Assembly: GCA_947450325.1 (NCBI GenBank)
Contig: CANFUT010000002.1
Coordinates: forward strand, 1 to 64,000
Direction of reading: 5' to 3'
DNA from: Flavobacteriia bacterium
Lineage (GTDB): Bacteria > Bacteroidota > Bacteroidia > Flavobacteriales_D > Crocinitomicaceae
DNA: 64,000 nucleotides
Made by a program: the position numbers and the translations under genes. The notes beneath the pieces were generated by a model, which was given only the letters and a program-made list of their open reading frames with translations, was not told where the DNA came from and did no database searches. This document shows positions 16,158-31,707 of the stretch, in pieces. Within the stretch, counting starts at the first letter, position 1, and the number at the start of each line of letters is the position of its first letter.

Positions 16158-17270
16158 ATGCCCAAGCCAAAATATTTGCTTTCTGAATATAATAAAAAGG
16201 AAATCTTCAAGAAGATTTGTATTCAAGTTGGTTTTCCAATTTTTACCAAATTAGATTGTAAAAAGGTCAGTGAATTGATTACAGAATCAGGTTTTTCTGG
16301 AATTTCAGAAAGTACGATTTATCGTTTATTTCTTTGGAAAGGAAATAAAAACAGGCCTTATTTGCATACCTTGAATACGTTAGCGGAATTTTGCGGATAT
16401 TCAAGTTGGAATGATTTTGAGATTCAGCAACAAGAGATAGATTCATTTGTACTAGGCTTTGGTAAATTTCAAAATTCTAAAGTTGAAGTTAAAAGTTTGA
16501 TTTCAATTTGCATCCATGAAAACGAATTGAAGCCGTTGTACCAATATACAGAGCAATTTGAAGCCATTGATGATTTTGAAATAAAATCCAAATTTGCAAA
16601 GGAGATTTTTAATTCAACACTCACGAATTCAAATAATGAGCAATTTTTTAAAACATTTCATCATTTTCCAATTATCAGGGAATTTTACTTTGAATTGCTC
16701 GCTGATCCTTCGTTTTCAATTCCTAATTATGAGTCTGGAATAGAATTATATCTAAAAAATATCAAGCCTGAAAATTCATTGAAAGATTTACAGGATTTTA
16801 TCTTTGGAAATTGTCTCTTGTTTCGACATTATTTTCTATCCAAGAAGTTAGTAAAAGCGAAAAAACTAGGGAAAATGTTGTTCGAAAATTTAGCATTGAA
16901 TGAAAAACAATTAAGTGAAATTCATGTTTTCCCTGTTGCACGCTACTTGTCCTGCAAATTGATGTATTTAGACCTCAAAAACAATTTAGTTGAAACATTT
17001 GATTTTATTGAAGAATTGCATGATTTTTTAGGAAAAAGAATGCCTGAAATTTCACTTCACGAGCAGCGAATTTTGTTTTATAATATCGGTGAAGCTTATG
17101 TATTTAATGGGTTGATTACCCAACAAGATCATGATCAATTGAAGAAATTATTTGCCCACTTGTTTGATCAACTTCCGAATCAATTAATTAAGCAGAAACT
17201 AGAAAAAATTGTTCCTTATTTCAATAAAAACGGTTCATTTTTGATTCATTACTTGAACCAATTGGAATAA
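16158..17270 (+). CDS. Putative regulator: HTH-like N-terminus plus helical repeats
   Basis: A 370-residue cytoplasmic protein. The first 95 residues form a small helical domain with SGISESTIYRLF, a basic KGNKNRPY loop and HTLNTLAEFCGYSSWNDF, a layout consistent with helix-turn-helix DNA binding. The rest is helical and rich in aromatic and acidic residues, without Cys clusters or enzyme motifs. The same layout and the S-x-x-TI-x-R / RPY-x-x-TLN signature occur in the gene at 23280-24539, so the two are distant paralogs. It is flanked on both sides by related AGTTnAAGTT motifs, which suggests autoregulation. I do not recognise a named family; the regulatory role is inferred. Confidence 0.6.
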   Translation: MPKPKYLLSEYNKKEIFKKICIQVGFPIFTKLDCKKVSELITESGFSGISESTIYRLFLWKGNKNRPYLHTLNTLAEFCGYSSWNDFEIQQQEIDSFVLGFGKFQNSKVEVKSLISICIHENELKPLYQYTEQFEAIDDFEIKSKFAKEIFNSTLTNSNNEQFFKTFHHFPIIREFYFELLADPSFSIPNYESGIELYLKNIKPENSLKDLQDFIFGNCLLFRHYFLSKKLVKAKKLGKMLFENLALNEKQLSEIHVFPVARYLSCKLMYLDLKNNLVETFDFIEELHDFLGKRMPEISLHEQRILFYNIGEAYVFNGLITQQDHDQLKKLFAHLFDQLPNQLIKQKLEKIVPYFNKNGSFLIHYLNQLE

Positions 17271-17289: not shown

Positions 17290-17336
17290 AATGTCAATGA
17301 ATCTGCAGAGTACATTTGAATACTAAAAAATGTATT

Positions 17337-17714
17337 ATGGCAGAAATAACAGTAAACGGAAGAATTAAAGTAAAATCATTCCAAAAATCATTTTTGAAAG
17401 AATATCCATATTTGGTTCCAACCATGAGAACTGAAGAGGGAAAAATGATTGACAATGAATTAACTATTGCAGGGGTTCGCTCCCAAGTAAATGGTGCATA
17501 TTCTCCATCTGGCGAATCTGAATTATCGGTAAATGGAAACCTTACAATCAAAGGATTTGAAGATCGTTTTGAAAAAGCATTTGGCGTTAAATGTGAAATT
17601 TGCTACCAAAAAAGTGGAAGAACTTTCAAAACAAATGAAAATTACGATTCTATGACATTGGCTTCTGCAAACAAAAAGTTGCAAGAAGACGGCGCAGAAG
17701 AAGTTGAAATCTAA
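17337..17714 (+). CDS. Small conserved protein with two related halves
   Basis: A 125-residue soluble protein starting at the ATG MAEITVNG (a TTG seven codons upstream is less likely). Residues 6-23 (VNGRIKVKSFQKSFLKEY) and 66-83 (VNGNLTIKGFEDRFEKAF) share the pattern VNG-x-x-x-(V/I)K-x-F-x-x-x-F, so the protein appears to hold an internal duplication of a beta-beta-helix unit. The end DSMTLASANKK recalls the (D)D-x-TLASIR motif of small conserved hypothetical proteins in Bacteroidota that carry similar paired halves; this is from memory and uncertain. It is the first gene of the KAP NTPase group. Confidence 0.7.
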   Translation: MAEITVNGRIKVKSFQKSFLKEYPYLVPTMRTEEGKMIDNELTIAGVRSQVNGAYSPSGESELSVNGNLTIKGFEDRFEKAFGVKCEICYQKSGRTFKTNENYDSMTLASANKKLQEDGAEEVEI

Positions 17715-17728
17715 TTAATTGATTATTG

Positions 17729-17757
17729 AAGCGGGAGAAATTCTTCCGCTTTTACTT
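17729..17757 (+). terminator. Terminator-like hairpin inside the KAP gene group
   Basis: AAGCGGGAGAA and TTCTTCCGCTT can pair over 8-11 bp, and the hairpin is followed by a short T-rich stretch (TTTTACTTT). It lies between the small duplicated protein and the tail-anchored protein, so it may reduce expression of the downstream genes relative to the first. Confidence 0.5.
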
Positions 17758-17772
17758 TAATATGTAAGCGCT

Positions 17773-18405
17773 ATGAAGTTACTTCCAAAATTGACGCCCG
17801 CTGAAGAGAAAGAAATTAAAAAAGGAGTGATTGAAGTGTATGGAAAACACATGAACAGAACTGCCTTAGGGGTTGTAGATGCTGTTTTACAATTATTTCC
17901 ATCAGTAACATTTGAGGAGCTGAAAGAAATTTTGCCGGATGCAATAAATCCAGCGGCACCTAAAAATTACAAATCGCTTTTCAAACCTTATACTGATCGC
18001 CTTTATGGTGTTGTTCAACCAGGCGTAATCCGAAAAGAATGCGAAGATGCAGGTTTAGATATCAATGCATCTCACTTTACTGAAAAAGGTGAAACTTTTA
18101 GAACAACCGATGGAATCGAAGTGTTGGTGTCAAAATCTTGGGAGTCGAAAGATACAGCTACAAATGAGCATGATTTACAAAATTTGATTGATCATATAGC
18201 TCAATATGGAATTCGCGTGGTTTCATTCGAAGCCAAAGATGAGGATTTCACGAAAGGAGGCTATTTCTTAAAAATCAACAATCCTGCTTTATTCAAAAAA
18301 ATCAGCTCCAAACATAAATCGGTTGCTAAAATAGTGTGGTTGCTACTGTCTTTAGGAATAGCAATTTCAGTGGCAGCAGTATTATTTTTCATCTTTAGAA
18401 AGTGA
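17773..18405 (+). CDS. Tail-anchored membrane protein of unknown function
   Basis: A 210-residue protein without a signal peptide. Residues 1-180 are soluble and mixed alpha/beta, and residues 187-208 form one hydrophobic helix (IVWLLLSLGIAISVAAVLFF) followed by Arg-Lys, so the soluble part should face the cytoplasm with the tail in the inner membrane. Features include an N-terminal LTPAEEKEIKKGVIEVYG helix, LFPSVTFEELKEILPDAI, and a beta-rich TTDGIEVLVSKSW segment. I recognise no family. The KAP NTPase gene starts 33 bases downstream; since that NTPase lacks membrane helices, this protein could tether it, which is an inference. Confidence 0.7.
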   Translation: MKLLPKLTPAEEKEIKKGVIEVYGKHMNRTALGVVDAVLQLFPSVTFEELKEILPDAINPAAPKNYKSLFKPYTDRLYGVVQPGVIRKECEDAGLDINASHFTEKGETFRTTDGIEVLVSKSWESKDTATNEHDLQNLIDHIAQYGIRVVSFEAKDEDFTKGGYFLKINNPALFKKISSKHKSVAKIVWLLLSLGIAISVAAVLFFIFRK

Positions 18406-18438
18406 TAATAATTTATTTCACTTTTCCAATCAATTAGC

Positions 18439-20205
18439 ATGCAAAAAACTTCAAATATCATAGATAAACCTCGCAAGGAGGGCGCTGAAGATTTATTAGG
18501 CGTTGACAAATACACCGACGCGTTAATACAATTCATTGAAACGTGTCAAATGCCAACAACCCTAGCCATTCAAGGAGAATGGGGAAGTGGAAAAACCTCT
18601 TTGCTGAATCAAATTCGCCATCGTTTGTGTGAATCAGATTTAAATACTCTTGAAGTAAATACTGCAAGACCATTTTATGGTATTTGGGTAAATACTTGGC
18701 AGTATTCCTTGATGAAAAGCAAAGATGAAGCACTCATTGCGATTATTGGAGGATTGACCAATGAAATTCTTTCCATTCTTAAATCAAAACACGAATCGAA
18801 AGCCAAAGCAACCATCAATAAAGTGAAAGGCTTATTTTCTAAATTGGGGAAAGTGGGTGCAAAAGCAGCAGTTAGCACCATCGGTTTGGAAACAGCTCTA
18901 GTTGATTCATTTTTGGAACGGGAAGAAGGCGAAGTGAATTTACTTCAATTTAAAAGTGCATTGCAAGATGCCATCAATGAATGTTTGGAGGAAGACCACA
19001 AACATGGAAATAATAACAAAGGATTTATTTTCTTCATCGATGATTTAGATCGAATTGATCCGCCAGTTGCGGTAGAGATTTTAGAACTCATTAAAAATAT
19101 CTTCGAAGTTGATAATTGTTTATTTGTATTAGCGATTGATTATGAGGTTGTCGTCAAAGGATTGATTCCGAAATTTGGACCTTTAACAGAAAAAAATGAA
19201 CGTGAATTTCGTTCGTTTTTTGACAAAATTATCCAACTACCATTTTCAATGCCGGTAGCCAATTACGATGTGACTAAGTTTTTAATTCATTCGTTGGAAG
19301 ACATTGGCTACATCGATAACCGCATTTTAGAAAATGACTTACTAAAGGAAAAATTAGCCGATTTAACTTTACTATCTGTCGGAACAAATCCGCGTTCTCT
19401 CAAAAGGTTGATTAATACACTTTCCCTTTTAAATATTATTGGGAAAATGGATGAAAATGAAGAAAAGGAAATCCACGAATTACTCATTAATTTCGCATTG
19501 GTTTGTATTCAAATTGCGTATCCAAAAATATATGAATTACTGACACAAGAACCTTCATTTAGAGAATGGACGGAACAAACCGCTAAAAAACTAAGACTTC
19601 CTGAATTGAATGAATCTCAATTAATTGTCTTAAACAGCACCCATGAATTTGACGAAGAATGGGAAAAAGTTTTGTTCAGAAAATGTCAGCAGGATCCATA
19701 CATGTCAAGCAGGGCTTTTCAAATTTCACAATTGCTGAATTACATCATTGAATTGGTGCCAGAGAAGATTAATTTTTCAGAAGAAATCTCGCGAATTATT
19801 GGATTTAGCGCCGTTACGAGCATCAATTTAGATCGAATTCCAAAAACAGTTTCAAAAGGAGAAAAAGTTCGTTTTGAGGGTTTTGCTGCACTAGGTGAAA
19901 TTCTAAAAGTCAATAAATTTAGTGATTCCTATATTGACACTTTAAAGGTTATTCACGATAAAATTGAAACGAGATTTAAAGATTTAATTCAAATCAATTA
20001 TACACCCAATTTTATCACCTTTACTTGTAAACACCCGAAAGGTAGAAGCAAAACCTTTTTATTTATCCGTTTTAAGAAAAATTTGGTACAATTTGAATTT
20101 TCAGGTCAAACGGCACAAATCATGGAAACAACAAATTTCACGGATGATTTGATGAATAAATTAGTGGATGCATTTAATAATTTATCTGAAAAACAATTAA
20201 ACTAA
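18439..20205 (+). CDS. KAP-family P-loop NTPase
   Basis: A 588-residue STAND/AAA-like ATPase of the KAP family. Residues 20-35 carry the usual start LLGVDKYTDALIQFI, Walker A is GEWGSGKTSLL (46-56), and Walker B is FIFFIDDLDRIDP (about 196-208), followed by ILELIKNIFEVDNCLFVLAIDYEVV and the GTNPRSLKRLINTL sensor that defines KAP proteins. Many KAP NTPases carry membrane helices between Walker A and B; here that segment (residues 110-160) is basic and amphipathic, not membrane-spanning. KAP proteins occur in defence systems and phage-exclusion proteins such as PifA, as well as elsewhere. The stop codon overlaps the start of the next, tiny gene by one base. Confidence 0.92.
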   Translation: MQKTSNIIDKPRKEGAEDLLGVDKYTDALIQFIETCQMPTTLAIQGEWGSGKTSLLNQIRHRLCESDLNTLEVNTARPFYGIWVNTWQYSLMKSKDEALIAIIGGLTNEILSILKSKHESKAKATINKVKGLFSKLGKVGAKAAVSTIGLETALVDSFLEREEGEVNLLQFKSALQDAINECLEEDHKHGNNNKGFIFFIDDLDRIDPPVAVEILELIKNIFEVDNCLFVLAIDYEVVVKGLIPKFGPLTEKNEREFRSFFDKIIQLPFSMPVANYDVTKFLIHSLEDIGYIDNRILENDLLKEKLADLTLLSVGTNPRSLKRLINTLSLLNIIGKMDENEEKEIHELLINFALVCIQIAYPKIYELLTQEPSFREWTEQTAKKLRLPELNESQLIVLNSTHEFDEEWEKVLFRKCQQDPYMSSRAFQISQLLNYIIELVPEKINFSEEISRIIGFSAVTSINLDRIPKTVSKGEKVRFEGFAALGEILKVNKFSDSYIDTLKVIHDKIETRFKDLIQINYTPNFITFTCKHPKGRSKTFLFIRFKKNLVQFEFSGQTAQIMETTNFTDDLMNKLVDAFNNLSEKQLN

Positions 20206-20378
20206 TGTTTGGATTTAAAGAAAAATTAGGCGTTTCTTTTTCTATGAAAAGATTGCTTGGAATTACTGGGTTAAAAAGCAGTTTTGCCCAAAAAACAGGC
20301 ATTCCAACTACAAAAGGTGGATTGGAAAGAAAAATTGGCGGTCAAATTCTAAAAGCCATTTTTGGCAAGAAAAAATAA
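20205..20378 (+). CDS. 57-residue basic peptide coupled to the KAP NTPase
   Basis: The ATG overlaps the KAP stop in TAATG, so translation is probably coupled. The product is small and strongly basic: it starts MFGFKEKLGVSFSMKRLLG, has KTGIPTTKGGLERKIG in the middle and ends in GKKK. The pattern (SFSMKRLLGITGLKS ... TGIPTTKGG ... RKIG) recalls a small conserved peptide family I have seen in other bacteria (SFS-x-KRALG-I-S ... IG-x-P-x-T-x-G-R-x-RK), but I cannot confirm this. A nucleic-acid- or membrane-binding role is possible. It is 33 bases before the UDG-like gene. Confidence 0.65.
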   Translation: MFGFKEKLGVSFSMKRLLGITGLKSSFAQKTGIPTTKGGLERKIGGQILKAIFGKKK

Positions 20379-20411
20379 TTGAATGTAGGATATTGAAAGA
20401 ATTTATTTGAA

Positions 20412-21302
20412 ATGTACGCAATTCATCCGAAACAAAAACAAATTATTCAATTGCTTGAAGATGCGTTTATTTGTCCTGAAAATGGCTTGGGTACAGTTTA
20501 TGATCAAATTGCGCAGTTTGTTGCAAATCAAATACCCAATTCAATCCAACATAGCACAGCTGAAAAGCTAAAATCGCCATTCTTTCAAATTTACCAAGAT
20601 TTTAGTGCTTCAATCACTACGATGGCGATTGATTTACCTGTTTTTTTATCTTCTAATTCGAAAAATAAAAAAACCATCATGGTTTGCGCGATGGACTCAC
20701 TTCCTCCACTTCCAACTAATCCATTTTGGAACAGCAGGCAAATTGATTTTAAAAAAGACATTGGTTTTTGGGCTCCGTTTAGTGTAATTGACGATTGGAA
20801 AAATCCAACTGGTTCCATGCGCACAAATATTCCGTTTTTTGAGACATTATTGGCTGAATACAATATTTACATAACGGATATTTATAAATTGTTTTTCCGC
20901 GTCGAAAAAGAAAATGGCTGGGTTAACAGCAACAGCATCGGATCATATACAAATTTGTCAGACCAAAAGGGAATTCATGTTCATGGCAAAATTTTAGCGC
21001 AGGAAATTGAAATAATTCAGCCAGAAGCGATTATTACCCTCGGAAATGCCTCAAGAAATTCTTTGCTGCAAATCAATACTTCCATGGGGTATGATGCACA
21101 AAATCCTTTAGGTTGGAAAGACGATATACAATCCTATTTCTGGGCAGATAAAATCAAAATTCTTGCATCAACACACATTTCGGGCGCAGCCAATGGAGCT
21201 AAATCTGCGATTCTTAGAAATCCGTCGTATACGCAGATTCAAGGAAAATACCAGAATGAGCGACTCGCCAAAATTATCCTTCAAAAATTAAACGATGAAT
21301 AA
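20412..21302 (+). CDS. Uracil-DNA-glycosylase-superfamily-like protein
   Basis: A 296-residue protein without signal peptide or membrane segments. The order of motifs recalls the UDG superfamily: a strand IMVCAMDSLPPLP (89-101) in the motif I position, a Rossmann-like EAIITLGNASRNSLL strand-turn (205-219), and ILASTHISGAANGAKS (250-265) in the place of the HPS-containing motif III loop. The classical catalytic residues are not clearly preserved, so it may bind rather than cut, or belong to an uncharacterised branch. The gene overlaps the downstream barrel gene by 8 bases and follows the KAP NTPase and the basic peptide, so all are likely in one transcript. Confidence 0.5.
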   Translation: MYAIHPKQKQIIQLLEDAFICPENGLGTVYDQIAQFVANQIPNSIQHSTAEKLKSPFFQIYQDFSASITTMAIDLPVFLSSNSKNKKTIMVCAMDSLPPLPTNPFWNSRQIDFKKDIGFWAPFSVIDDWKNPTGSMRTNIPFFETLLAEYNIYITDIYKLFFRVEKENGWVNSNSIGSYTNLSDQKGIHVHGKILAQEIEIIQPEAIITLGNASRNSLLQINTSMGYDAQNPLGWKDDIQSYFWADKIKILASTHISGAANGAKSAILRNPSYTQIQGKYQNERLAKIILQKLNDE

Positions 21303-22092
21303 ATTTATCTGTGGAATTTGGATTGTAATATTTCATTCTTTTGTAACTCAAAGTCAGGTGTTAAATATCGATCGAGTGACAGAAACCGATTCTATTTTCA
21401 AAAAATTTAGAGCTTATACTAATTTGAGTTTTTCAAACGAAAAACAAAAGAAAGCATTGATAGATTTTACCAATAAAACAGAGCTCAACTATTTCTTACC
21501 CAAAAAATATTTGGTGGTTTTTTTGAGTCAGGTTGACATGGCTTTCAATGGCAAAGCGATCAACGAAAACAACGGTTTTTTTCAGGCGAGATTTAGAGAC
21601 CATGACTCCCGAAAAGTCAGTCCAGATGTTTTTACGCAATACCAATGGAACGGAATTCAAGGAATGGAATACCGTTTTTTAAATGGAATCAATGCGCGTT
21701 TTAAATTTTTGGAGAAGAAAAAATCTGATTTATATACAGGATTTGGTGTTTTTTACGAAGCTGAAAAATGGAATCCCCACTTGCCTTCATTTGCCTTTAA
21801 AAGTGCTGCACTCAACACTGTTTATCGAAACATGTTTCGCCTCAATTGTTCTGCAAAATTTGCCATTAAATTGAGTAAATCAATTGATTTTTCAGGTTCA
21901 ACTTTCGTACAATTTCCCCTCAATGCACATTTCGGTTCGCCGCGGTGGTTTTTTGACTCCAATCTAAACTTCAACGTCAGCAAATATTGGTCTTTCATTC
22001 TACATTACGACCATAATTTTGACGCATTTCGACCATTGCCAATTGATCAGTATTATTATGCGATGACATTGGGAATTCAGTTGAAAGTTTGA
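21295..22092 (+). CDS. Outer-membrane beta-barrel (DUF481-like)
   Basis: A 265-residue protein with a signal peptide (cleavage near FVTQSQ) and a body of about ten amphipathic strands: AFNGKAINENNGFFQARFRD, VFTQYQWNGIQGMEYRFLNG, DLYTGFGVFYEAEKW, and a final YYYAMTLGIQLKV strand as in outer-membrane barrels. The pattern (hydrophobic-alternating, FTQYQ-x-N and E-x-RFLNG) is like the DUF481 family. It overlaps the UDG-like gene by 8 bases, which is unusual for an envelope protein next to a putative DNA-binding protein, and may be only a chance operon. Confidence 0.65.
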   Translation: MNKFICGIWIVIFHSFVTQSQVLNIDRVTETDSIFKKFRAYTNLSFSNEKQKKALIDFTNKTELNYFLPKKYLVVFLSQVDMAFNGKAINENNGFFQARFRDHDSRKVSPDVFTQYQWNGIQGMEYRFLNGINARFKFLEKKKSDLYTGFGVFYEAEKWNPHLPSFAFKSAALNTVYRNMFRLNCSAKFAIKLSKSIDFSGSTFVQFPLNAHFGSPRWFFDSNLNFNVSKYWSFILHYDHNFDAFRPLPIDQYYYAMTLGIQLKV

Positions 22093-22093
22093 T

Positions 22094-22208
22094 TTATTTC
22101 AACAATTCAAACACCCAAGAATGTCCTGTTTTTTTGGCGAAAGAATACACATTTTTTCAAGCATGGATTTTATTGTCCATTTCACGGTAAAGTTTCAAGA
22201 CCATTTCT
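22094..22208 (-). pseudogene. Decayed 3' end of a paralog of the 23280-24539 gene
   Basis: Bases 22094-22168 match 23280-23357 with two substitutions and one missing T in a T-run, which breaks the frame. Bases 22168-22208 then match 23535-23575 with about three substitutions, so a 177-bp internal deletion joins the parts. In the right copy these encode the C-terminus of the helical paralog (FAKKTGHSWVFELLK and LYREMDNKI). The remnant lies on the minus strand next to the Bro-N gene. Confidence 0.75.
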
Positions 22209-25140: not shown

Positions 25141-25998
25141 ATGAAAGAACTATTAGAAATAATAAAATCTGATCTTACGTGCTTATTTAACACTGACAAA
25201 ATTGAAAATGCAGTAATTTTTAATAAAGCATTAGGAAAAGAATTTATTTCAGAGAATTTTATTCCAATGTATTTTGGTGGAAAATACGATGCAAAAACAG
25301 TATTTGTAATGTTAAATCCAGGAGGTCAGTTAAACAACAGTTACGCTTTCTCAAAAAAAGATAAATCAAATTATGAAAATGTTGATGATTTCGTTTCAAA
25401 ATATGTTGAAAGACATATAAATATTGGAAAAATAGATTTTGATCGACTTGACAATTTTGATTTAAAACAAGCCGCTTTTCTTCTTCCGTTTCAAGATTCG
25501 GGTATTTCACTTCCCGATTTTACCCTAGATTTAAAAAATCGTGAGTTAAAATTAAAAGCGAAAGAAGCCGTTTTAATGCAGAAACTACAACTAGAATTAA
25601 TTCCGTACCACTCTGCAAAGTTCGATGAGCTTCTTAGTAATGAAAAAATAGCGAAGAATAATATTGATTTGTTTCTGCCTCACATTAACAGACTTTTAAA
25701 TGTAATTACTTCAGAAGATCGAAAATATGTCATTTTCGGTGCGAAACAGTTTTATTATTTATTCAAAGCTTTCCAAAATAAATTCCCCGAATCAATTAAA
25801 TTTAAAGAAGCTAAAAGTTTTAAAATAGAAGGGTTAAAAAACAAAACAAACTTGTGCTTAATTCAAATTAACCACAATAATAAAAAAATTAAAGGCTTGA
25901 TTGCACATTCCTTTCCTCGCAGAGATTTACCAAATGCTTACGAGAAAATGAAAAAATATGGTGAATTATGTTTTAATGAATTTCAACAAACTTTTTAA
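25141..25998 (+). CDS. Second uracil-DNA-glycosylase-like protein
   Basis: A 285-residue cytoplasmic protein. Motifs in order: TVFVMLNPGG (53-62), where UDG-like proteins carry their first active-site loop; LELIPYHSAKF (151-161); a Rossmann-like KYVIFGAKQFYYLF (195-208); and IAHSFPRRDLPNAYEKM (254-270), which takes the place of the HPS loop. This is the pattern I associate with uncharacterised UDG-superfamily proteins of the FVMLNPG type. The gene is followed after 9 bases by a small acidic-protein gene. It is distinct from the one at 20412, so two UDG-like genes occur within 5 kb. Confidence 0.5.
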   Translation: MKELLEIIKSDLTCLFNTDKIENAVIFNKALGKEFISENFIPMYFGGKYDAKTVFVMLNPGGQLNNSYAFSKKDKSNYENVDDFVSKYVERHINIGKIDFDRLDNFDLKQAAFLLPFQDSGISLPDFTLDLKNRELKLKAKEAVLMQKLQLELIPYHSAKFDELLSNEKIAKNNIDLFLPHINRLLNVITSEDRKYVIFGAKQFYYLFKAFQNKFPESIKFKEAKSFKIEGLKNKTNLCLIQINHNNKKIKGLIAHSFPRRDLPNAYEKMKKYGELCFNEFQQTF

Positions 25999-26472: not shown

Positions 26473-26633
26473 TAATATAACATGAAGATTGAAAAGAAAA
26501 TTACAATTGTCGAAGAAAGAAATGGCGTTAATAAAGTTATAGGTTGTTAACGGCTAAAGAACCTAGGGATTTCTTGTATTTCTGTAAATTTAAATCATTT
26601 TAAAAATTAATCCTACTACCAACCCAAAATGAA
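26473..26633 (+). other. AT-rich gap with a 22-codon open frame
   Basis: Between the acidic-protein gene and the terminator hairpin I see only a short frame at 26482-26550 (starts MKIEKKITIVEERNG and ends GC), too short to call. No tRNA or repeat is visible. Confidence 0.3.
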
Positions 26634-26675
26634 AATTCCTCACTTTAATCTAAAAAGTGGGGAGTTTCGTTTTTA
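26634..26675 (+). terminator. Rho-independent terminator
   Basis: A 13-bp stem (AATTCCTCACTTT with AAAGTGGGGAGTT, two G-T pairs) is followed by TCGTTTTT. It closes the accessory region transcript before the symporter gene. Confidence 0.75.
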
Positions 26676-26776
26676 ATCAATCTCCGTTTTGCAGCTATTT
26701 CAGAAAATGTTATTTTTAACATTTAATAACTTCGATTTAGAAACTCTGAAAATCAAAATCAACAACACGCTTCAAT

Positions 26777-28333
26777 TTGTATTTTTTTCTCCTCTATTTT
26801 GCATTAATCATTGGATTTACTTTTCTCCAAAAAAAGGAAATATTCAAGGGTGTGTTCAAGGTTTCTGGACAAAAATCTTGGGTTGTTTCTGGCTTGTCTT
26901 TGTTTATGTATTACGTTTCTGTTGATCAAGGCCAATTGATTACGGGCGTCATTCACCAAAAAGGACTTTCTGGACTTTGGATATTTTGGGCAAGTTTCCT
27001 TGGTGCTGCTTTTGTGCCAATTGTGTTGGCGCCACTTTGGTCTAAATTGAATTTCATCACTGACAATCAGTTTATTTTATTTCGATTTTCAGGCAAATCA
27101 GCCAGAATTTTGCATCAATTTCGATCTGTTTATGTGGGTGGAATTGTAGTTGCTTTCTTAATCAGTTTTCATACACTTGCGTTTAGCCGAATTATTCAAC
27201 TTTATTTCAAAATAGATTTAGACACTTCGATCTTAATTACAGGAATTATCCTGCTTATTTTCACCTTAAAAAATAGTTTGAACTTAAAATTCACATTGGA
27301 TGTGTATCATTCTGTAATCTATGTTATTAGTCTGGCCATTTCTTTTTATTTCCTTTTTAAATTGGCCCATGGTTGGGACCATTCTATTCAGATATTAGCC
27401 AAAAAAAATCCTGAAACATTATCGATTTTCCCCAAATCAACGGATTCCTCCAATTGGAATTCAATCTACCTATACTTGGGTGTATTGTGGTGGAGCACGC
27501 AACTTTTTGATGGCGGTGGACCAGAAATGGCTAGATATACCGCTGTCAAAGGAAAATGGAATGCCATTAAAACAGGTTTATTGCCAGTGATTTTAAACTT
27601 ATTTCTTTCGGTGATTCTTGTTGGAATGGCCATTTTATCCGTTTCAATTCATCCCAATCAAAAAGAAGAAATTTCCTTTGTTCAGAATATTTTCGAATCA
27701 GTTCCAGATTGGCTAGATCCGGTTTGTTTGATTGGATTTTTTGCTATGTACATCACAACCGTAGAATCCATGCTTAATTGGGGAGGTTCGTTTCTGACAA
27801 TTGATTTTTACAAGACTTATTTGAGACCAAATCAGTCCAAAAAGCACTACGCAATTCTATCCTTTTTGGCGATGACATTTATTTGCGTTCTTTCGATTTT
27901 AATCACGAGAAACATGAGTAGTTTAGAAAGTGTGATCAAAGTAGTATTCTCAATTTCGGCTGGCGTTGCTCCCGTGTATATCTTGCGTTGGTTTTGGCTT
28001 CGCATCAATGCATGGAGTCAACTTTCAGCAATGATTGCTTCTGGAGTTTACACTTTAGCCTTTAATTGGTATGTTTCGCTATATCCGATTCAAACGCCCA
28101 ATTTCAATGAATACAATTGGCAAATTGTAACCGTAACCCTTTTGACAACCATTACTTGGATTATTGTTACGTTTTTGACACCCAAAGATGATTTGAAAAT
28201 AATTGAAAGATTCAAGGCAATATTGCCATCTACGAAGGAGATTTTGCAGCGGAGTGGAATTGCTTTATTATTGGGAGTTTTGCTTTTGGTTATTTTGGTT
28301 ATTTCAATTAAAACAATTTTGATTTGGTTTTAA
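26777..28333 (+). CDS. Sodium:solute symporter (SSS family)
   Basis: A 518-residue polytopic membrane protein with about 13 hydrophobic helices, starting with YFFLLYFALIIGFTFL and continuing GLSLFMYYVSVDQGQLITGVI, as in SSS transporters, plus ILWWSTQLFDGGGPEMARYTAVK-like loops (residues about 235-260) typical of the family. The substrate is not clear from sequence. No ATG lies in frame between the upstream stop (26747) and the first helix, so the start is the TTG at 26777 or another non-ATG codon. The 3' end is convergent with queA, 4 bases apart. Confidence 0.85.
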   Translation: MYFFLLYFALIIGFTFLQKKEIFKGVFKVSGQKSWVVSGLSLFMYYVSVDQGQLITGVIHQKGLSGLWIFWASFLGAAFVPIVLAPLWSKLNFITDNQFILFRFSGKSARILHQFRSVYVGGIVVAFLISFHTLAFSRIIQLYFKIDLDTSILITGIILLIFTLKNSLNLKFTLDVYHSVIYVISLAISFYFLFKLAHGWDHSIQILAKKNPETLSIFPKSTDSSNWNSIYLYLGVLWWSTQLFDGGGPEMARYTAVKGKWNAIKTGLLPVILNLFLSVILVGMAILSVSIHPNQKEEISFVQNIFESVPDWLDPVCLIGFFAMYITTVESMLNWGGSFLTIDFYKTYLRPNQSKKHYAILSFLAMTFICVLSILITRNMSSLESVIKVVFSISAGVAPVYILRWFWLRINAWSQLSAMIASGVYTLAFNWYVSLYPIQTPNFNEYNWQIVTVTLLTTITWIIVTFLTPKDDLKIIERFKAILPSTKEILQRSGIALLLGVLLLVILVISIKTILIWF

Positions 28334-28337
28334 AACT

Positions 28338-29573
28338 TTAAGAATTCCTCCACAACAAACTCCCATCCCCATAACTCAAAAATCGATACTCATTTTCCAA
28401 CGCAAATTGATAAATCGTTTTCCATTCTTCACCCACGAATGCATGAATCAGCAGCAATAACGTCGATTGCGGTTGGTGAAAATTAGTCAGAATTGCATCG
28501 ACCATTCTCAAGTTGTAACCTGGTGCTATCAATAATTGGGTTTTGGTTATCAGTCGATTTATTTTTTGGTCTTCCATGTATTTAACTAACGATTCTAACG
28601 CGACGTTTACAGATATTTCTTGTGGTAAATCATAAGCATCCCATTGTTGAATGCCAATTTCTGAAAGATCAATTTGCGCATGACTATGCACTTTGACACC
28701 CATCCAATATAAACTTTCCAAAGTTCGCAGCGAAGTAGTTCCAACAGCAATGAGGTTTTTGGGCAAATGCTGTGCAATTGCAATGATGGTTTCCAACGAA
28801 ACATCTATGAATTCTGAATGCATTTCGTGTTCACCCAAAGTTTCCGTTTTTACAGGTTTGAAAGTACCTGCGCCTACATGCAATGTCACAAATGAAGTCT
28901 TGATTCCTTTTGCTGAAAGACTTTGCATTACATTGTCTGTGAAATGCAATCCAGCTGTGGGTGCTGCCACCGAACCGTCATATTTGGCATAAATCGTTTG
29001 ATACAAAGCTTTGTCTTTTTCTTCAGTATCTCGATTGAGGTAAGGAGGAAGCGGAACAATTCCAGCATCGCTCAAAACTTCGGCAAAACAGATGTCTTTT
29101 CCGTCCCAAGAAAACTCGATCAAAAAAGAATCCGATAAACGTTCTTTTTTGGCAGCTGAAAGTATATATTTTTTTTTTGCGGTTTCTATTTCTAAAACAA
29201 GCGTTTCTTCTTTCCATTTTTTAGCACCACCAACCATGCATTTCCATAGTACGCGGTTCTTTTGAAACATGGCGGTCGTGATATCTGAATAATGATCGGC
29301 TGGTTCAAGACAGAACAATTCAATTTTGCCTCCTGTTTTCTTGGTGAAGATTAATCTAGCTTCCACTACTTTCGTGTTGTTCATGATTAACATGGTATCT
29401 GAAGGTAGAAAAGCAGCCAAATCGGAATAAACAGCCTCATCCATTTTTCCATTTTTGTGAATCAAAAGTTTACTTGTATCTCTCGGTTCAACTGGATATT
29501 TTGCAATTTTTTCCTCAGGTAAATCATAGTTGAAATGTACCATCGAAGTGTTTTGTACAATGTTTTTTGACAT
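28338..29573 (-). CDS. queA: S-adenosylmethionine:tRNA ribosyltransferase-isomerase (QueA family)
   Basis: The enzyme transfers the ribosyl part of SAM to 7-aminomethyl-7-deazaguanine in tRNA, making epoxyqueuosine. Visible landmarks are the N-terminal FNYDLPEEKIAKYPVEPRDTSKL, MLIMNNTKVVEARL, GAGTFKPVKTETLGEHEMHSE and LITNFHQPQSTLLLLIHAF-type motifs. At 411 residues it belongs to the long QueA form common in Flavobacteriia, compared with about 350 residues in E. coli. The ATG at 29573 was preferred over a GTG at 29594 because homologs start near FNYDLP. The gene is convergent with the symporter gene. Confidence 0.93.
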   Translation of the reverse strand: MSKNIVQNTSMVHFNYDLPEEKIAKYPVEPRDTSKLLIHKNGKMDEAVYSDLAAFLPSDTMLIMNNTKVVEARLIFTKKTGGKIELFCLEPADHYSDITTAMFQKNRVLWKCMVGGAKKWKEETLVLEIETAKKKYILSAAKKERLSDSFLIEFSWDGKDICFAEVLSDAGIVPLPPYLNRDTEEKDKALYQTIYAKYDGSVAAPTAGLHFTDNVMQSLSAKGIKTSFVTLHVGAGTFKPVKTETLGEHEMHSEFIDVSLETIIAIAQHLPKNLIAVGTTSLRTLESLYWMGVKVHSHAQIDLSEIGIQQWDAYDLPQEISVNVALESLVKYMEDQKINRLITKTQLLIAPGYNLRMVDAILTNFHQPQSTLLLLIHAFVGEEWKTIYQFALENEYRFLSYGDGSLLWRNS

Positions 29574-29732
29574 AATAAATATATTCAAGTGCACAAAAGT
29601 ACAATTGAAAAGAGATTACTCCAACATCTTGCATTACAATGAATTTTAGGAAGTACTAATAAACTTATTTTTTCATTGAGAAATTAACAAAACAATTTCC
29701 ATAAATTTACACGCAACTTAGAAAAGAAAACA

Positions 29733-30884
29733 ATGAAAAAAGATATGAAATTCGGTACAAAAGCCATCCACGCTGGTGCGCATCCAGATCCAACGACAGG
29801 TGCAATCATGACACCAATTTTCCAAACTTCTACTTATGTGCAAGAAGCGCCAGGTGTAAACAAAGGTTTTGGTTATGCGCGTGGGAAAAATCCTACTCGT
29901 GAAGCATTGCAAGAAAATATTGCTGCCTTGGAAAATGGTAAACATTGCGTTTGTTTTTCAAGCGGAATGGGTGCTACAGACGCTGTGATTAGAACTTTGC
30001 GTCCTGGTGATGAGGTGATTACTGGCGATGATTTGTACGGTGGTTCTTACCGTTTGTTTACCAAAATTTACGAACCTTACGGAATCAAATTTCATTTCGT
30101 GAATTTGACAGACGCTTCTAACATTGAGCAATACATCAATGAAAACACGAAAATGATTTGGGCTGAAACGCCAACCAATCCGACGATGCAAATCATTGAC
30201 ATCGAAGCGTGTTCAAAAATCGCCAAAACACATAATTTGACTTTGGTAGTTGACAATACATTTGCTTCGCCTTATTTGCAAAATCCTTTGAATTTGGGTG
30301 CTGACATAGTGATGCATTCTGTAACCAAATACCTAGGTGGACACAGTGATGTGGTGATGGGCGCATTGATTACCAACAGCGACGAATGGCATGAAAAATT
30401 ATATTTTGTATTGAATTCGTGCGGCGCAAATCCTGGTCCGATGGACAGCTTTTTAGTGATGCGTGGAATCAAAACTTTGCATTTGCGCATGGAAAGACAT
30501 TGTTTTAATGGAAGAAAAGTGGCTGAATACTTAAAAAATCATCCAAAAATTGAAAAAGTGTATTGGCCAGGATTTCCTGAGCATCCAAATCATGAAATTG
30601 CGAAGAAACAAATGCGTGATTTTGGTGGAATGATTTCCATTGTTTTGAAAGATGCATCAATCGAAAATACTTTCAAAGTAGCGTCTTCTTTCCACGTTTT
30701 TTCTTTGGCGGAATCATTGGGTGGCGTTGAATCTTTGATCAATCATCCTGCTACAATGACGCATGCTTCTATTCCAAAAGCTGAAAGAGAAAAAGCAGGT
30801 GTTGTTGATAATTTATTGCGTTTGAGTGTTGGGGTGGAAGACATCGAAGACATCTTGGCGGACATTGAACAAGCATTGGCATAA
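29733..30884 (+). CDS. metB: Cystathionine gamma-synthase-like PLP enzyme
   Basis: A 383-residue trans-sulfuration enzyme of the Cys/Met metabolism family (PF01053). The order is FGTKAIHAGAHPDPTTGAI, PIFQTSTY, GFGYARGKNPTREALQ (PLP-phosphate site), GDDLYGGSYRLF, VDNTFASPYLQ, and the Schiff-base Lys199 in MHSVTKYLGGHSDVVMG. The C-terminal domain has FSLAESLGGVESLINHPATMTHASIP. Family members act as cystathionine gamma-synthase, beta/gamma-lyase or methionine gamma-lyase; the sequence pattern fits the Bacteroidota proteins annotated as cystathionine gamma-synthase, but substrate choice cannot be read off safely. The next gene starts directly at the stop codon. Confidence 0.88.
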   Translation: MKKDMKFGTKAIHAGAHPDPTTGAIMTPIFQTSTYVQEAPGVNKGFGYARGKNPTREALQENIAALENGKHCVCFSSGMGATDAVIRTLRPGDEVITGDDLYGGSYRLFTKIYEPYGIKFHFVNLTDASNIEQYINENTKMIWAETPTNPTMQIIDIEACSKIAKTHNLTLVVDNTFASPYLQNPLNLGADIVMHSVTKYLGGHSDVVMGALITNSDEWHEKLYFVLNSCGANPGPMDSFLVMRGIKTLHLRMERHCFNGRKVAEYLKNHPKIEKVYWPGFPEHPNHEIAKKQMRDFGGMISIVLKDASIENTFKVASSFHVFSLAESLGGVESLINHPATMTHASIPKAEREKAGVVDNLLRLSVGVEDIEDILADIEQALA

Positions 30885-31598
30885 ATGTCAAAAACATACA
30901 TAATCACAGGCGTTTCGAGAGGAATTGGAAAGGCTTTGGCAGAACATTTTCTCTCGAAAAACCATGCAGTCATTGGCATCGGTCGAATGCATTCAATTCA
31001 CAATCCAAACTTCCATTTTATCGAATTGGATTTATTAGATTCTGCTGCGATTCAACAGTTGCAACTTCCAACAATCGAAAGTGATGAAATCATCTTGATT
31101 AATAACGCTGGAATAATTGGAAATATCGAACGAATTTCCTCTATGAAAATAGATTGTATCAGCGAAATTATGCAAGTAAATGTAACTGCACCCATTCAAT
31201 TGACACGAAAAATCAGTGAAATTTGCGGAAACAAGAAACATTTCACCCTTGTGAATATCAGTTCCGGCGCAGGTAAAAGAGCAATTCCTTCGTGGGCAGG
31301 ATATTGTTCTTCAAAAGCAGCAATCGACATGTTTTCTCAAACCTTTTTGTTGGAAGAACGTGAATTGGGAAGGGCGACTAAAGTTTATTCAGTTTCTCCA
31401 GGTGTAATTGATACGGACATGCAAATTCAAATTCGTGCGACAGATGAAAGTTCTTTTTCTAGCTTGGAAAATTTTCAAAATTTGAAGTCAGAAAATAAAT
31501 TAGAAACGCCAGAAAGAATTGCTTTAAAATTGGACAAACTATTAAGTATTCCTTATTCTGACGAAGTTTTATTTGCATTAAACGATGTGCTTATTTAG
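30885..31598 (+). CDS. Short-chain dehydrogenase/reductase
   Basis: A 237-residue SDR enzyme with the cofactor loop TGVSRGIG (8-15), NNAG (73-76), the catalytic Ser in NISSGAG (124-130) and YCSSK (Tyr140, Lys144). A C-terminal VIDTDMQIQIR segment is present. The sequence resembles the sepiapterin-reductase-like / (S)-benzoin-forming SDR group, whose short loop after Rossmann strand 1 is visible here, but the substrate is not known. It starts with the ATG directly after the TAA of the PLP enzyme gene, so the two are in one operon. Confidence 0.88.
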   Translation: MSKTYIITGVSRGIGKALAEHFLSKNHAVIGIGRMHSIHNPNFHFIELDLLDSAAIQQLQLPTIESDEIILINNAGIIGNIERISSMKIDCISEIMQVNVTAPIQLTRKISEICGNKKHFTLVNISSGAGKRAIPSWAGYCSSKAAIDMFSQTFLLEERELGRATKVYSVSPGVIDTDMQIQIRATDESSFSSLENFQNLKSENKLETPERIALKLDKLLSIPYSDEVLFALNDVLI

Positions 31599-31707
31599 AA
31601 TGATTTTACCGTTTAATCAATAGATATGCCATTTAACCAATAAATCTTTCTTATTTTTAAACCTTTTTGTAACTTGTGGCGTTTTAAATAAACTCAAAAA
31701 ATAAACT

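What the first reader, a model, noticed from the sequence alone, without database searches (positions are those of the whole stretch)
17337..22092. Candidate undescribed system: KAP NTPase operon
Six genes are in one direction with short gaps or overlaps: a small duplicated protein, a tail-anchored membrane protein, a KAP NTPase without its own membrane helices, a 57-residue basic peptide coupled in TAATG, a UDG-like protein and an outer-membrane barrel. KAP NTPases occur in phage exclusion. A separate membrane anchor plus a DNA-binding-like partner is not a combination I know. The neighbourhood (Bro-N, HTH-like proteins, gene debris, DUF4143 ATPase) is typical of an island. The system's function is not visible in the sequence.
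Basis: inference. Interest (0 to 1): 0.7.

Follow-up and report, generated by a model that had tools for sequence, protein, structure and literature searches.

The report
Modular KAP–glycosylase membrane operon
Six neighbouring bacterial genes belong to a mix-and-match gene set seen in many Bacteroidota that joins a KAP-type motor protein, membrane parts and DNA-attacking enzymes; it is most likely a virus-defence machine, but that role is untested.

Summary
The six genes are real, at the stated coordinates, and evolve under purifying selection. The set recurs. Of 79 genome loci fetched with the 57-aa peptide g4, 13 hold this KAP, and in 7 g4 starts at -1 or +2 from its stop. Anchored on KAP instead, 15 of 20 close-KAP loci carry at least one partner family against 0 of 9 distant-KAP loci (p=2e-4); without the outer-membrane family, 9 of 20 (p=0.017).

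It is modular: 10 of 15 aligned g2 relatives continue into an OmpA-like domain; g4 also sits with small membrane proteins, TerB, TerD/VWA/PP2C/kinase operons and DNA enzymes (UDG-like, PvuRts1I-SRA, GIY-YIG, PD-(D/E)XK). The UDG-like profile's best PDB hit is the Sulfolobus tokodaii family-4 UDG, also Brig1's best structural match.

Best reading (inferred): an envelope-tethered KAP NTPase system delivering an exchangeable DNA-damaging effector, here a Brig1-like glycosylase. Against it: defence families in the flanks are not significantly enriched (at most 6/118 vs 1/118, p=0.06), a terminator-like hairpin splits g1 from the rest, nothing is assayed. A Ter-type stress response is the main rival. 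Qat, Zorya, Tmn/PifA and Brig1 memberships failed. New variant of a known kind.

The parts
16158..17270 (+). HTHa-like 370-aa protein; frequent upstream neighbour, perhaps a regulator or lineage marker, not core
   Evidence: no Pfam match; its cluster is in 13 loci of the g4 set incl. the window; upstream of the set in L223, L227, L235; homology to G061 ends at 17301
17311..17318 (+). TANNTTTG motif (Bacteroidota -7-like box, motif recalled), 18 bases before the g1 start
   Evidence: pattern match only, no chance control
17337..17714 (+). g1: 125-aa soluble protein made of two b-a-b-a repeats
   Evidence: family in 25 of 79 genome loci fetched with g4; no significant PDB fold match
17728..17752 (+). 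terminator/attenuator-like hairpin, 11-bp stem, followed by a U-rich stretch
   Evidence: z -3.41; same stem in L091. Not in the tool's terminator list
17773..18405 (+). g2: cytosolic domain plus C-terminal membrane helix; 10 of 15 aligned relatives are 309-415 aa and continue into an OmpA-like domain
   Evidence: OmpA confirmed by Pfam in L155 and L224
18439..20205 (+). KAP-family P-loop NTPase without internal membrane helices; C-terminal domain (about 465-588) shared with a TerB-domain protein in G061 and a similar protein in G182
   Evidence: Pfam PF07693 6e-38; PADLOC PDC-S20 1e-31, PifA 5e-29, QatA 2e-18; C-terminal domain matches; TerB in the G061 protein
20205..20378 (+). g4: 57-aa basic peptide, translationally coupled to KAP (TAATG)
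   Evidence: w 0-0.14 in the five pairs with finite dS; 79 genome loci kept for its profile; gap to KAP -1 or +2 in 7 of the 13 that hold KAP
20412..21302 (+). g5: uracil-DNA-glycosylase-superfamily protein with conserved active-site-type positions (D95, T155-D156, E198, H255)
   Evidence: Pfam UDG 1e-4, below cut-off; alignment A4; PDB 4zbx/4zby E 1.1e-4 and type-4 UDG / UDG X chains
21295..22092 (+). g6: predicted outer-membrane barrel (DUF481-like, below cut-off)
   Evidence: its family lies by 11 of 22 close KAP loci (two of these at only 27% identity) and 0 of 9 distant ones
22093..22174 (-). remnant of the 3' end of an HTHb-like gene, scar of rearrangement downstream of g6
   Evidence: DNA matches to the 3' ends of HTHb-like genes of G061

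Best explanation
The operon is one build of a modular, envelope-tethered KAP NTPase system. Shown by sequence: a soluble KAP NTPase, coupled translationally to a basic peptide (g4), next to a protein with a cytosolic-type domain and one membrane helix (g2; in most aligned relatives continuing into an OmpA-like, peptidoglycan-binding-type domain), a two-repeat small protein (g1), a UDG-superfamily-like enzyme (g5) and a predicted outer-membrane barrel (g6). Inferred: g2 (or, in other builds, three small membrane proteins) and g6 anchor or inform the complex at the envelope; g1 and g4 are adaptors linking KAP to membrane and effector; on an infection signal the KAP NTPase, possibly as a DNA-binding ring like QatA, loads the effector onto incoming DNA, and g5 removes a modified base (Brig1-like), leaving abasic sites that stop phage replication. 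In other builds the effector place is taken by PvuRts1I-SRA, GIY-YIG or PD-(D/E)XK nucleases.
For: Recurrence: 15 of 20 KAP-anchored loci carry at least one module family against 0 of 9 for distant KAPs, p 2e-4; without the OMP family 9 of 20, p 0.017. Order HTHa-G1-G1'-69-KAP-G4-M104-M129-M74-UDG-OMP in G780, nearly the same set reordered in G865 and, with g2 added, in G807; G1-s89-G2-KAP-G4 in L093 and L096. KAP/g4 coupling in 7 loci. DNA-acting neighbours: UDG or UDG2 within -4..+5 genes of g4 in 12 of 79 genome loci; PvuRts1I-SRA in 7, GIY-YIG in 6, PD-(D/E)XK in 3 (labels from one representative each). UDG-like profile hits 4zbx/4zby, the protein that is Brig1's best structural match (PMC11078745, passages); the position of the base-reading Asn is Asp156 in 15 of 15, where Brig1 has Glu147. 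Tmn and QatA are KAP members of anti-phage systems, QatA binds DNA and forms 7-8-mers (PMC11846954, PMC13279940, passages). TerB occurs in Shango and Bunzi (PMC10952713, passage). In the window itself Bro-N and DUF4143 match PADLOC candidates PDC-S13 (4e-134) and PDC-S01 (7e-90). Purifying selection on the six genes.
Against: No phage or defence assay. Flank enrichment for PADLOC families not significant (at most 6/118 vs 1/118 at 1e-20, p 0.06; no difference at 1e-10). QatA is dispensable for part of Qat defence, so a KAP need not be the effector switch. g5 scores below Pfam's UDG cut-off and does not match NCBIfam Brig1; the Asp156/Glu147 equivalence runs through an alignment to type-4 UDG / UDG X chains, because the 4zbx alignment starts after that loop. 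5 of 22 close KAP loci have no module within reach, and 6 of the 17 others have only the OMP family. No phage or plasmid home was found: g4 in both, KAP in phages, g5 in plasmids gave none, KAP in plasmids one 30% hit. g1 paralogues sit by hemN- and copper-ATPase-like genes, so g1 is not defence-specific. g1 and g2 have no recognised fold.
Confidence: 0.5

Rival explanations
1. A Ter-type general stress or envelope-damage response: the KAP complex senses envelope or DNA damage (metal, oxidative, bacteriocin) and g5 repairs or protects host DNA; phage defence would be incidental.
For: g4 stands beside VWA genes in TerD/VWA/PP2C/kinase/PRTase operons (8 loci: L108, L110-L114, L116, L134); TerB-type proteins next to KAP builds (L045, L224, L225); ion channel and pyroglutamyl-peptidase-like genes in the pool; no significant defence-family enrichment in the flanks.
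Against: PvuRts1I-SRA restriction enzymes and nucleases in the same pool; swapped halves between congeneric species and patchy distribution (KAP at E<=1e-30 in 10 of 385 genomes) fit conflict genes better than housekeeping; TerY-P modules themselves are linked to restriction and defence (PMC11090510, passages).
Confidence: 0.27
2. No joint function: a recombination hotspot collects small independent genes, and g4 is merely a mobile or homologous joint between them.
For: In G112 two short ORFs join a g4 start to a UDG-like end, and g4 is present in 2 copies in G061 and 3 in G112; g4 adjoins very different genes; homology breaks at 17301 and 18421.
Against: g4 is under purifying selection and coupled to KAP at -1/+2 in loci whose KAPs are 64-99% identical to the window's; KAP-anchored searches recover the same families, distant KAPs recover none.
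Confidence: 0.13
3. A peptide-based interbacterial conflict or signalling system: g4 (basic, pI 10.9) is a secreted or membrane-active peptide, the small membrane proteins are immunity or export parts, KAP drives release.
For: g4 followed directly by M104/M129/M74-family genes in 12 loci; MvdD-type ATP-grasp with an 81-84-aa peptide gene in the same pool.
Against: No export signal was apparent to me by eye in g4 (no signal-peptide program was run); 19 invariant columns among 12 g4 proteins, unlike diversifying toxins; often adjacent to DNA enzymes.
Confidence: 0.08

Closest known systems
qatABCD (QatA KAP NTPase)
   Same: multi-gene operon with a KAP NTPase and a nucleic-acid enzyme (QatD)
   Different: QatA NCBIfam score 73 against cut-off 600; no QueC-like or TatD-like protein among the six genes; membrane and outer-membrane partners here
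PifA and Tmn (KAP exclusion proteins)
   Same: KAP NTPase core (PADLOC PifA E 5e-29 over residues 7-330)
   Different: Tmn has two transmembrane domains (PMC11846954, passage; for PifA recalled); here KAP shows none and the anchor is a separate gene
Brig1/Brig3 anti-phage DNA glycosylases
   Same: g5 is UDG-superfamily-like, its best PDB hit is the S. tokodaii UDG as for Brig1; acidic residue at the base-reading position
   Different: no NCBIfam Brig1 match for g5; part of a KAP/membrane operon; activity untested
Zorya
   Same: relatives of g2 have a membrane helix plus OmpA-type domain; PADLOC ZorB hits fall in that domain; envelope complex plus DNA effector (recalled)
   Different: no Zorya model hit in the window operon; window g2 lacks OmpA; different cytosolic domain
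Ter / TerY-P linked systems, Shango, Bunzi (TerB)
   Same: TerB next to KAP builds; g4 inside TerD/VWA/PP2C/kinase operons
   Different: no Ter domain in the window operon itself
PADLOC candidate PDC-S20
   Same: KAP of the window matches it at 1e-31
   Different: the library names no partners in the output; taken from its name to be a single-gene candidate

Membership tests
KAP P-loop NTPase (PF07693) | profile match above the curated cut-off | tested here: met
   131.2 bits vs cut-off 20, E 6.2e-38; Walker A GEWGSGKTS by eye
PifA / Tmn type KAP | transmembrane helices within the KAP protein | tested here: not met
   no 19-residue hydropathy window above 1.6 in 588 aa, max 1.51 (a simple scale, no dedicated predictor)
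qatABCD | QatA equivalog model | tested here: not met
   73 bits vs cut-off 600
qatABCD | QueC-like QatC and TatD-like QatD in the operon | tested here: not met
   no such Pfam family in the six genes and four flanking genes scanned
Zorya | ZorA (MotA-like) and ZorB (OmpA/MotB-like) pair | tested here: not met
   no PADLOC Zorya hit in the window operon; only the OmpA part of a g2 relative hits ZorB, 3e-7
Brig1 (NF047634) | equivalog profile above 230 bits | tested here: not met
   no match of g5 at E<=1; UDG2 at 25141 only 12.6 bits
UDG superfamily (PF03167) | profile match above cut-off | tested here: inconclusive
   22.8 and 24.2 bits vs 24.3; profile-based PDB hit 4zbx 1.1e-4
UDG superfamily (PF03167) | base excision activity | not testable with these tools
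   needs an enzyme assay
Ter-dependent systems | Ter-domain protein (TerB/TerC/TerD/TerY) in the operon | tested here: not met
   none in the window operon; present in relatives
ubiquitin-like fold (g1) | significant structural match | tested here: inconclusive
   best Foldseek E 0.16; VIA Z at most 4.1, rmsd 3.3, 63 aligned, MCU domain first, ubiquitin-fold rows tied with it

The most novel reading that the evidence does not exclude
A previously undescribed exchangeable chassis in Bacteroidota (g1, g2 or small membrane proteins, s89, g4) physically couples very different switches (KAP NTPases, TerB proteins, TerY-P kinase/phosphatase triads) to very different DNA-damaging effectors (Brig1-like glycosylases, PvuRts1I-SRA, GIY-YIG, PD-(D/E)XK) at the cell envelope, so that KAP-based and Ter-based immunity are two builds of one architecture that attacks modified DNA as it enters.
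Probability: 0.3. Interest if true: 0.85.

Novelty: new variant of a known kind. Interest (0 to 1): 0.62.

Why it matters
What KAP NTPases and Ter proteins do is a long-standing open question. A recurring gene set that joins both to a membrane anchor and to recognisable DNA enzymes turns it into a testable one: does the complex sit at the envelope, and does the glycosylase remove modified bases from incoming DNA. It also gives family handles for finding such loci: PADLOC has no hit for g1, s89 and g4, and for g2 only through the OmpA part of a relative.

Tried and rejected
Fold of g1: AlphaFold model good (pLDDT 86) but no Foldseek match at E<=0.001; weak GABARAP/ubiquitin-fold and MCU rows were not taken as an assignment. 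Fold of g2: pLDDT 81, no significant match, one VIA row shown, Z 2.8. KAP C-terminal domain as DUF5655 (a recalled guess): no Pfam hit to it for the window domain or its two relatives; dropped. KAP against PDB sequences: one row, E 0.37. UDG2 (window 25141-25998) against PDB: best rows are TIM barrels at E 0.007 and weaker, so its UDG assignment rests on a 12.6-bit Brig1 hit and my reading of motifs. Defence-family test: 118 of 143 collected flank proteins of system loci (25 loci) and 118 of 192 control proteins by g1 paralogues and similar loci (15 loci), sampled at random, proteins over 900 aa left out; the tables count members and give only the best E-value per family, so 'at most 6 vs 1 proteins at E<=1e-20' and 'about 9 vs 9 at 1e-10' are my reading. 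Short g2 going with OMP and long (OmpA) g2 without it: 4 of 6 vs 0 of 10 incl. the window, but G807 has long g2 and OMP and lineage confounds it; dropped. Viral homes: g4 profile 2 relatives among 39 stretches of viral contigs, g2 profile none of 95 stretches. In one search two close KAP loci were left out: G708 (not fetched) and G035 (KAP cut at the contig end; its upstream part showed no module, so it would count as a miss). Of the 22 used, L045 and L053 contribute to the reference set and were left out of the 15/20 count; four loci (G111, G029, G090, G135) are of one genus and several lie on contigs under 10 kb, so loci are neither independent nor equally long. In L057 the only g2 hit is to the OmpA part; OMP hits of L057 and L061 are at 27% identity. 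L091-L169 were fetched by g4, so co-occurrence there is ascertained by g4; the KAP-anchored test is not. Neighbour clusters are single-linkage BLAST clusters (50% coverage); labels come from Pfam scans of one or a few members (the ion-channel label from the G061 protein; the L167 representative of that cluster had no Pfam hit).
Full report
Observation. The six reading frames exist at the stated places with the stated couplings. The small first protein is a true internal duplication (0 of 2000 shuffles reach the half-to-half score). KAP is a KAP_NTPase with no membrane helix by a simple hydropathy scan, g2 has one C-terminal hydrophobic segment, g4 has pI 10.9. The genes are not debris: dN/dS between the window and its nearest relative L091 is 0.07, 0.16, 0.025, 0, 0.31 and 0.17 for g1 to g6 (0.56 for the flanking Bro-N gene), and g4 stays at 0.08-0.14 in the four other pairs in which dS is finite. 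One correction: between g1 and g2 lies a hairpin of 11 pairs followed by a U-rich stretch (z -3.4), with the same stem in L091, so g1 may be expressed mostly apart from the rest. The tool's own terminator scan did not list it.

Where it is. The window lies in a 3.4-Mb genome. A same-genus genome, G061, shows the same site, with aspS, a wg-like gene, DUF4143 and HTHa on one side and the 26591-32837 region (SSS and queA-like genes) on the other; DNA homology to the window stops at 17301, just after HTHa, and resumes at 18421, just before KAP, up to 22153; the one piece between is a 140-bp 71% match inside g1. In the exchanged part G061 has a channel, a pyroglutamyl-peptidase-like protein, another g1, a TerB-domain protein that shares KAP's C-terminal domain, a second g4 and three small membrane proteins. 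So one half of the operon differs, the KAP-g4-UDG-OMP half is kept. A second same-genus genome, G204, has neither g4 nor HTHa. Contig lengths tie G061, G112 and G270 to records titled Chryseobacterium gleum, Lishizhenia tianjinensis and Crocinitomicaceae bacterium; these metagenome-bin titles disagree with each other, and I take the window to be of the order Flavobacteriales, perhaps Crocinitomicaceae.

Recurrence. Own genome counted, g2 is found in 2 of 199 genomes of the order, g1 in 15 of 199, of which 4 are strong (E<=1e-36) and the rest paralogue-like, KAP in 24 of 199 including distant KAPs, and g4 in 14 of 299 at E<=0.01. A profile of g4 found 107 relatives in the genome collection, of which the best 80 (79 loci) were kept. 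Of these 79 loci, neighbours include g1 in 25, s89 (an 80-97-aa protein) in 17, g2 in 15, KAP in 13, UDG-like in 11, M104 and M74 in 12 each, a channel family in 10, OMP in 8, TerB in 7, PvuRts1I-SRA in 7, GIY-YIG in 6, ATP-grasp in 5 and PD-(D/E)XK in 3. KAP is followed by g4 with a gap of -1 or +2 in 7 of the 13 and of 71 in an eighth. In L093 and L096 the order is c54 - G1 - s89 - G2 - KAP - G4 - OMP - (M104 in L096) - M74 - UDG.

A test not anchored on g4. KAP hits at E<=1e-30 were taken from the order and the class (10 of 385 genomes), and their loci read. In 17 of 22 loci at least one of G1, s89, G2, G4, M104/M129/M74, UDG, UDG2, OMP or TerB lies within about 8.5 kb; leaving out the two loci that fed the reference set, 15 of 20. 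For nine loci of distant KAPs the count is 0 of 9 (Fisher p = 2.0e-4). OMP is the most frequent and the least specific family: without it the count is 11 of 22, or 9 of 20 (p 0.017). OMP 9 of 20 (p 0.017) and G1 8 of 20 (p 0.029) were also tested singly. The five misses are L055, L056, L058, L059, L060, three of them with KAPs of 38-39% identity. G780 has HTHa - G1 - G1' - 69 - KAP - G4 - M104 - M129 - M74 - UDG - OMP; G865 has the same families in another order; G807 adds g2 with OmpA and an EcsC-TerB protein; second loci of G865 and G780 have KAP followed by UDG2, the family of window 25141-25998.

Modules. g2 relatives of 309-415 aa (10 of 15 aligned) continue from the membrane helix into an OmpA-like domain (Pfam in L155 and L224), so g2 in those cases can be expected to hold peptidoglycan. 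g4 is directly followed by M104/M129/M74-family genes in 12 loci; membrane segments were computed for the G061 copies. g4 stands next to a VWA gene in eight loci (L108, L110-L114, L116, L134) whose neighbours include TerD, PP2C, kinase or PRTase clusters. In seven loci g4 follows a PvuRts1I-SRA gene and a long g1, in six of them with s89 in between (the L141 enzyme is PADLOC mREase_II 2e-82).

The effector. A profile of 15 g5-family proteins has 4zbx/4zby, called Uracil-DNA glycosylase, as best PDB match (E 1.1e-4), with type-4 UDG / UDG X chains next (E 0.006 and weaker). Invariant residues D95, Y153, T155, D156, K159, E198, G211 and H255 fall on UDG-type motifs; H255 aligns with a histidine of 4zbx, and T155-D156 with the T-N of the 8iit chain. 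Passages of PMC11078745 say that Brig1's best structural match is the Sulfolobus tokodaii enzyme 4ZBY and that its Glu147 takes the place of Asn82. The acid at this position in g5 is therefore compatible with a modified-base glycosylase. Passages of PMC13160076 extend the group to Brig3 with a partner enzyme. g5 itself does not match NCBIfam's Brig1 model.

Mechanism. Shown: the composition, the coupling, the anchors, the Walker A and UDG-type motifs, the exchange of halves. Inferred: that these proteins form one complex; that g2, the small membrane proteins and the barrel place it at the envelope; that KAP acts as a DNA-engaging switch (QatA binds DNA and forms 7-8-mers but is dispensable for part of Qat defence, PMC13279940, passages; Tmn is a KAP defence protein, PMC11846954, passages); that g5 damages incoming DNA. 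I put 0.5 on this reading. The main rival, a Ter-type stress response, gets 0.27, because Ter proteins share the pool and because the flanks show no significant surplus of defence families (at most 6 vs 1 of 118 at 1e-20, p 0.06; no difference at 1e-10).

Comparison. It works like Qat (KAP plus nucleic-acid enzyme), Zorya (envelope anchor plus DNA effector, recalled) and Brig1 (base excision), and fails the membership tests of each (see the table). TerB is listed for Shango and Bunzi in PMC10952713 (passage), a TerB system 'Dionysus' is listed in PMC12926258 (passages), and TerY-P modules are described as linked to restriction and defence in PMC11090510 (passages). One passage of PMC10853773 puts a KAP NTPase with an Orc/CDC6 pair, a different set. 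Ten paper searches, nine of them on KAP, Ter, OmpA and glycosylase combinations and one on Brig1, listed no paper whose title or abstract start describes this gene set; subscription papers and most preprints are not in that library, so an existing description cannot be excluded.

Verdict. Real, conserved, modular, very likely a functional system; defence is the most likely role but unproven. New variant of a known kind; interest 0.62.

Noticed in passing
window 25141-25998 and L103, L142, L146, L226, L229: A second UDG-like family (UDG2, weak Brig1 hit 12.6 bits) 3 kb downstream; in L226 and L229 the same family directly follows KAP, in L103 it follows g4.
   Followed up: partly
G000:C35:17172-17507 (L185) and G000:C15:71414-71767 (L186): g1 paralogues in the window's own genome beside a universal-stress-type protein and a hemN-like gene, and beside a copper-ATPase/cbb3-type cluster. 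Gene names are my reading of sequence, not Pfam scans.
   Followed up: partly
L053 (13162-13410, 12179-13162), L123, L125, L149, L161: MvdD-type ATP-grasp ligase with an 81-84-aa precursor-like peptide gene (graspetide-like, recalled) inside the same gene pool.
   Followed up: partly
L129, L133, L141, L143, L145, L148, L163: PvuRts1I-SRA restriction enzyme, long g1 and g4 in seven loci, with s89 in six of them.
   Followed up: partly
L053 9011-9274 and 6496-6855: Short ORFs that begin as g4 and end as the C-terminus of the UDG-like protein, apparent recombination scars in G112.
   Followed up: no
L045 7986-10132 and L053 13479-15616: Ion-channel protein with a long soluble part, coupled to a pyroglutamyl-peptidase-like protein, as a two-gene unit in G061 and G112.
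   Followed up: partly
window 28338-29594: A QueA-like gene that is a second, divergent copy: G061 has a 92% match here plus a 38% one elsewhere, G204 only the 38% one.
   Followed up: no
L045 3735-5194: Partial duplicate of the DUF4143 ATPase gene directly before the longer copy in G061.
   Followed up: no
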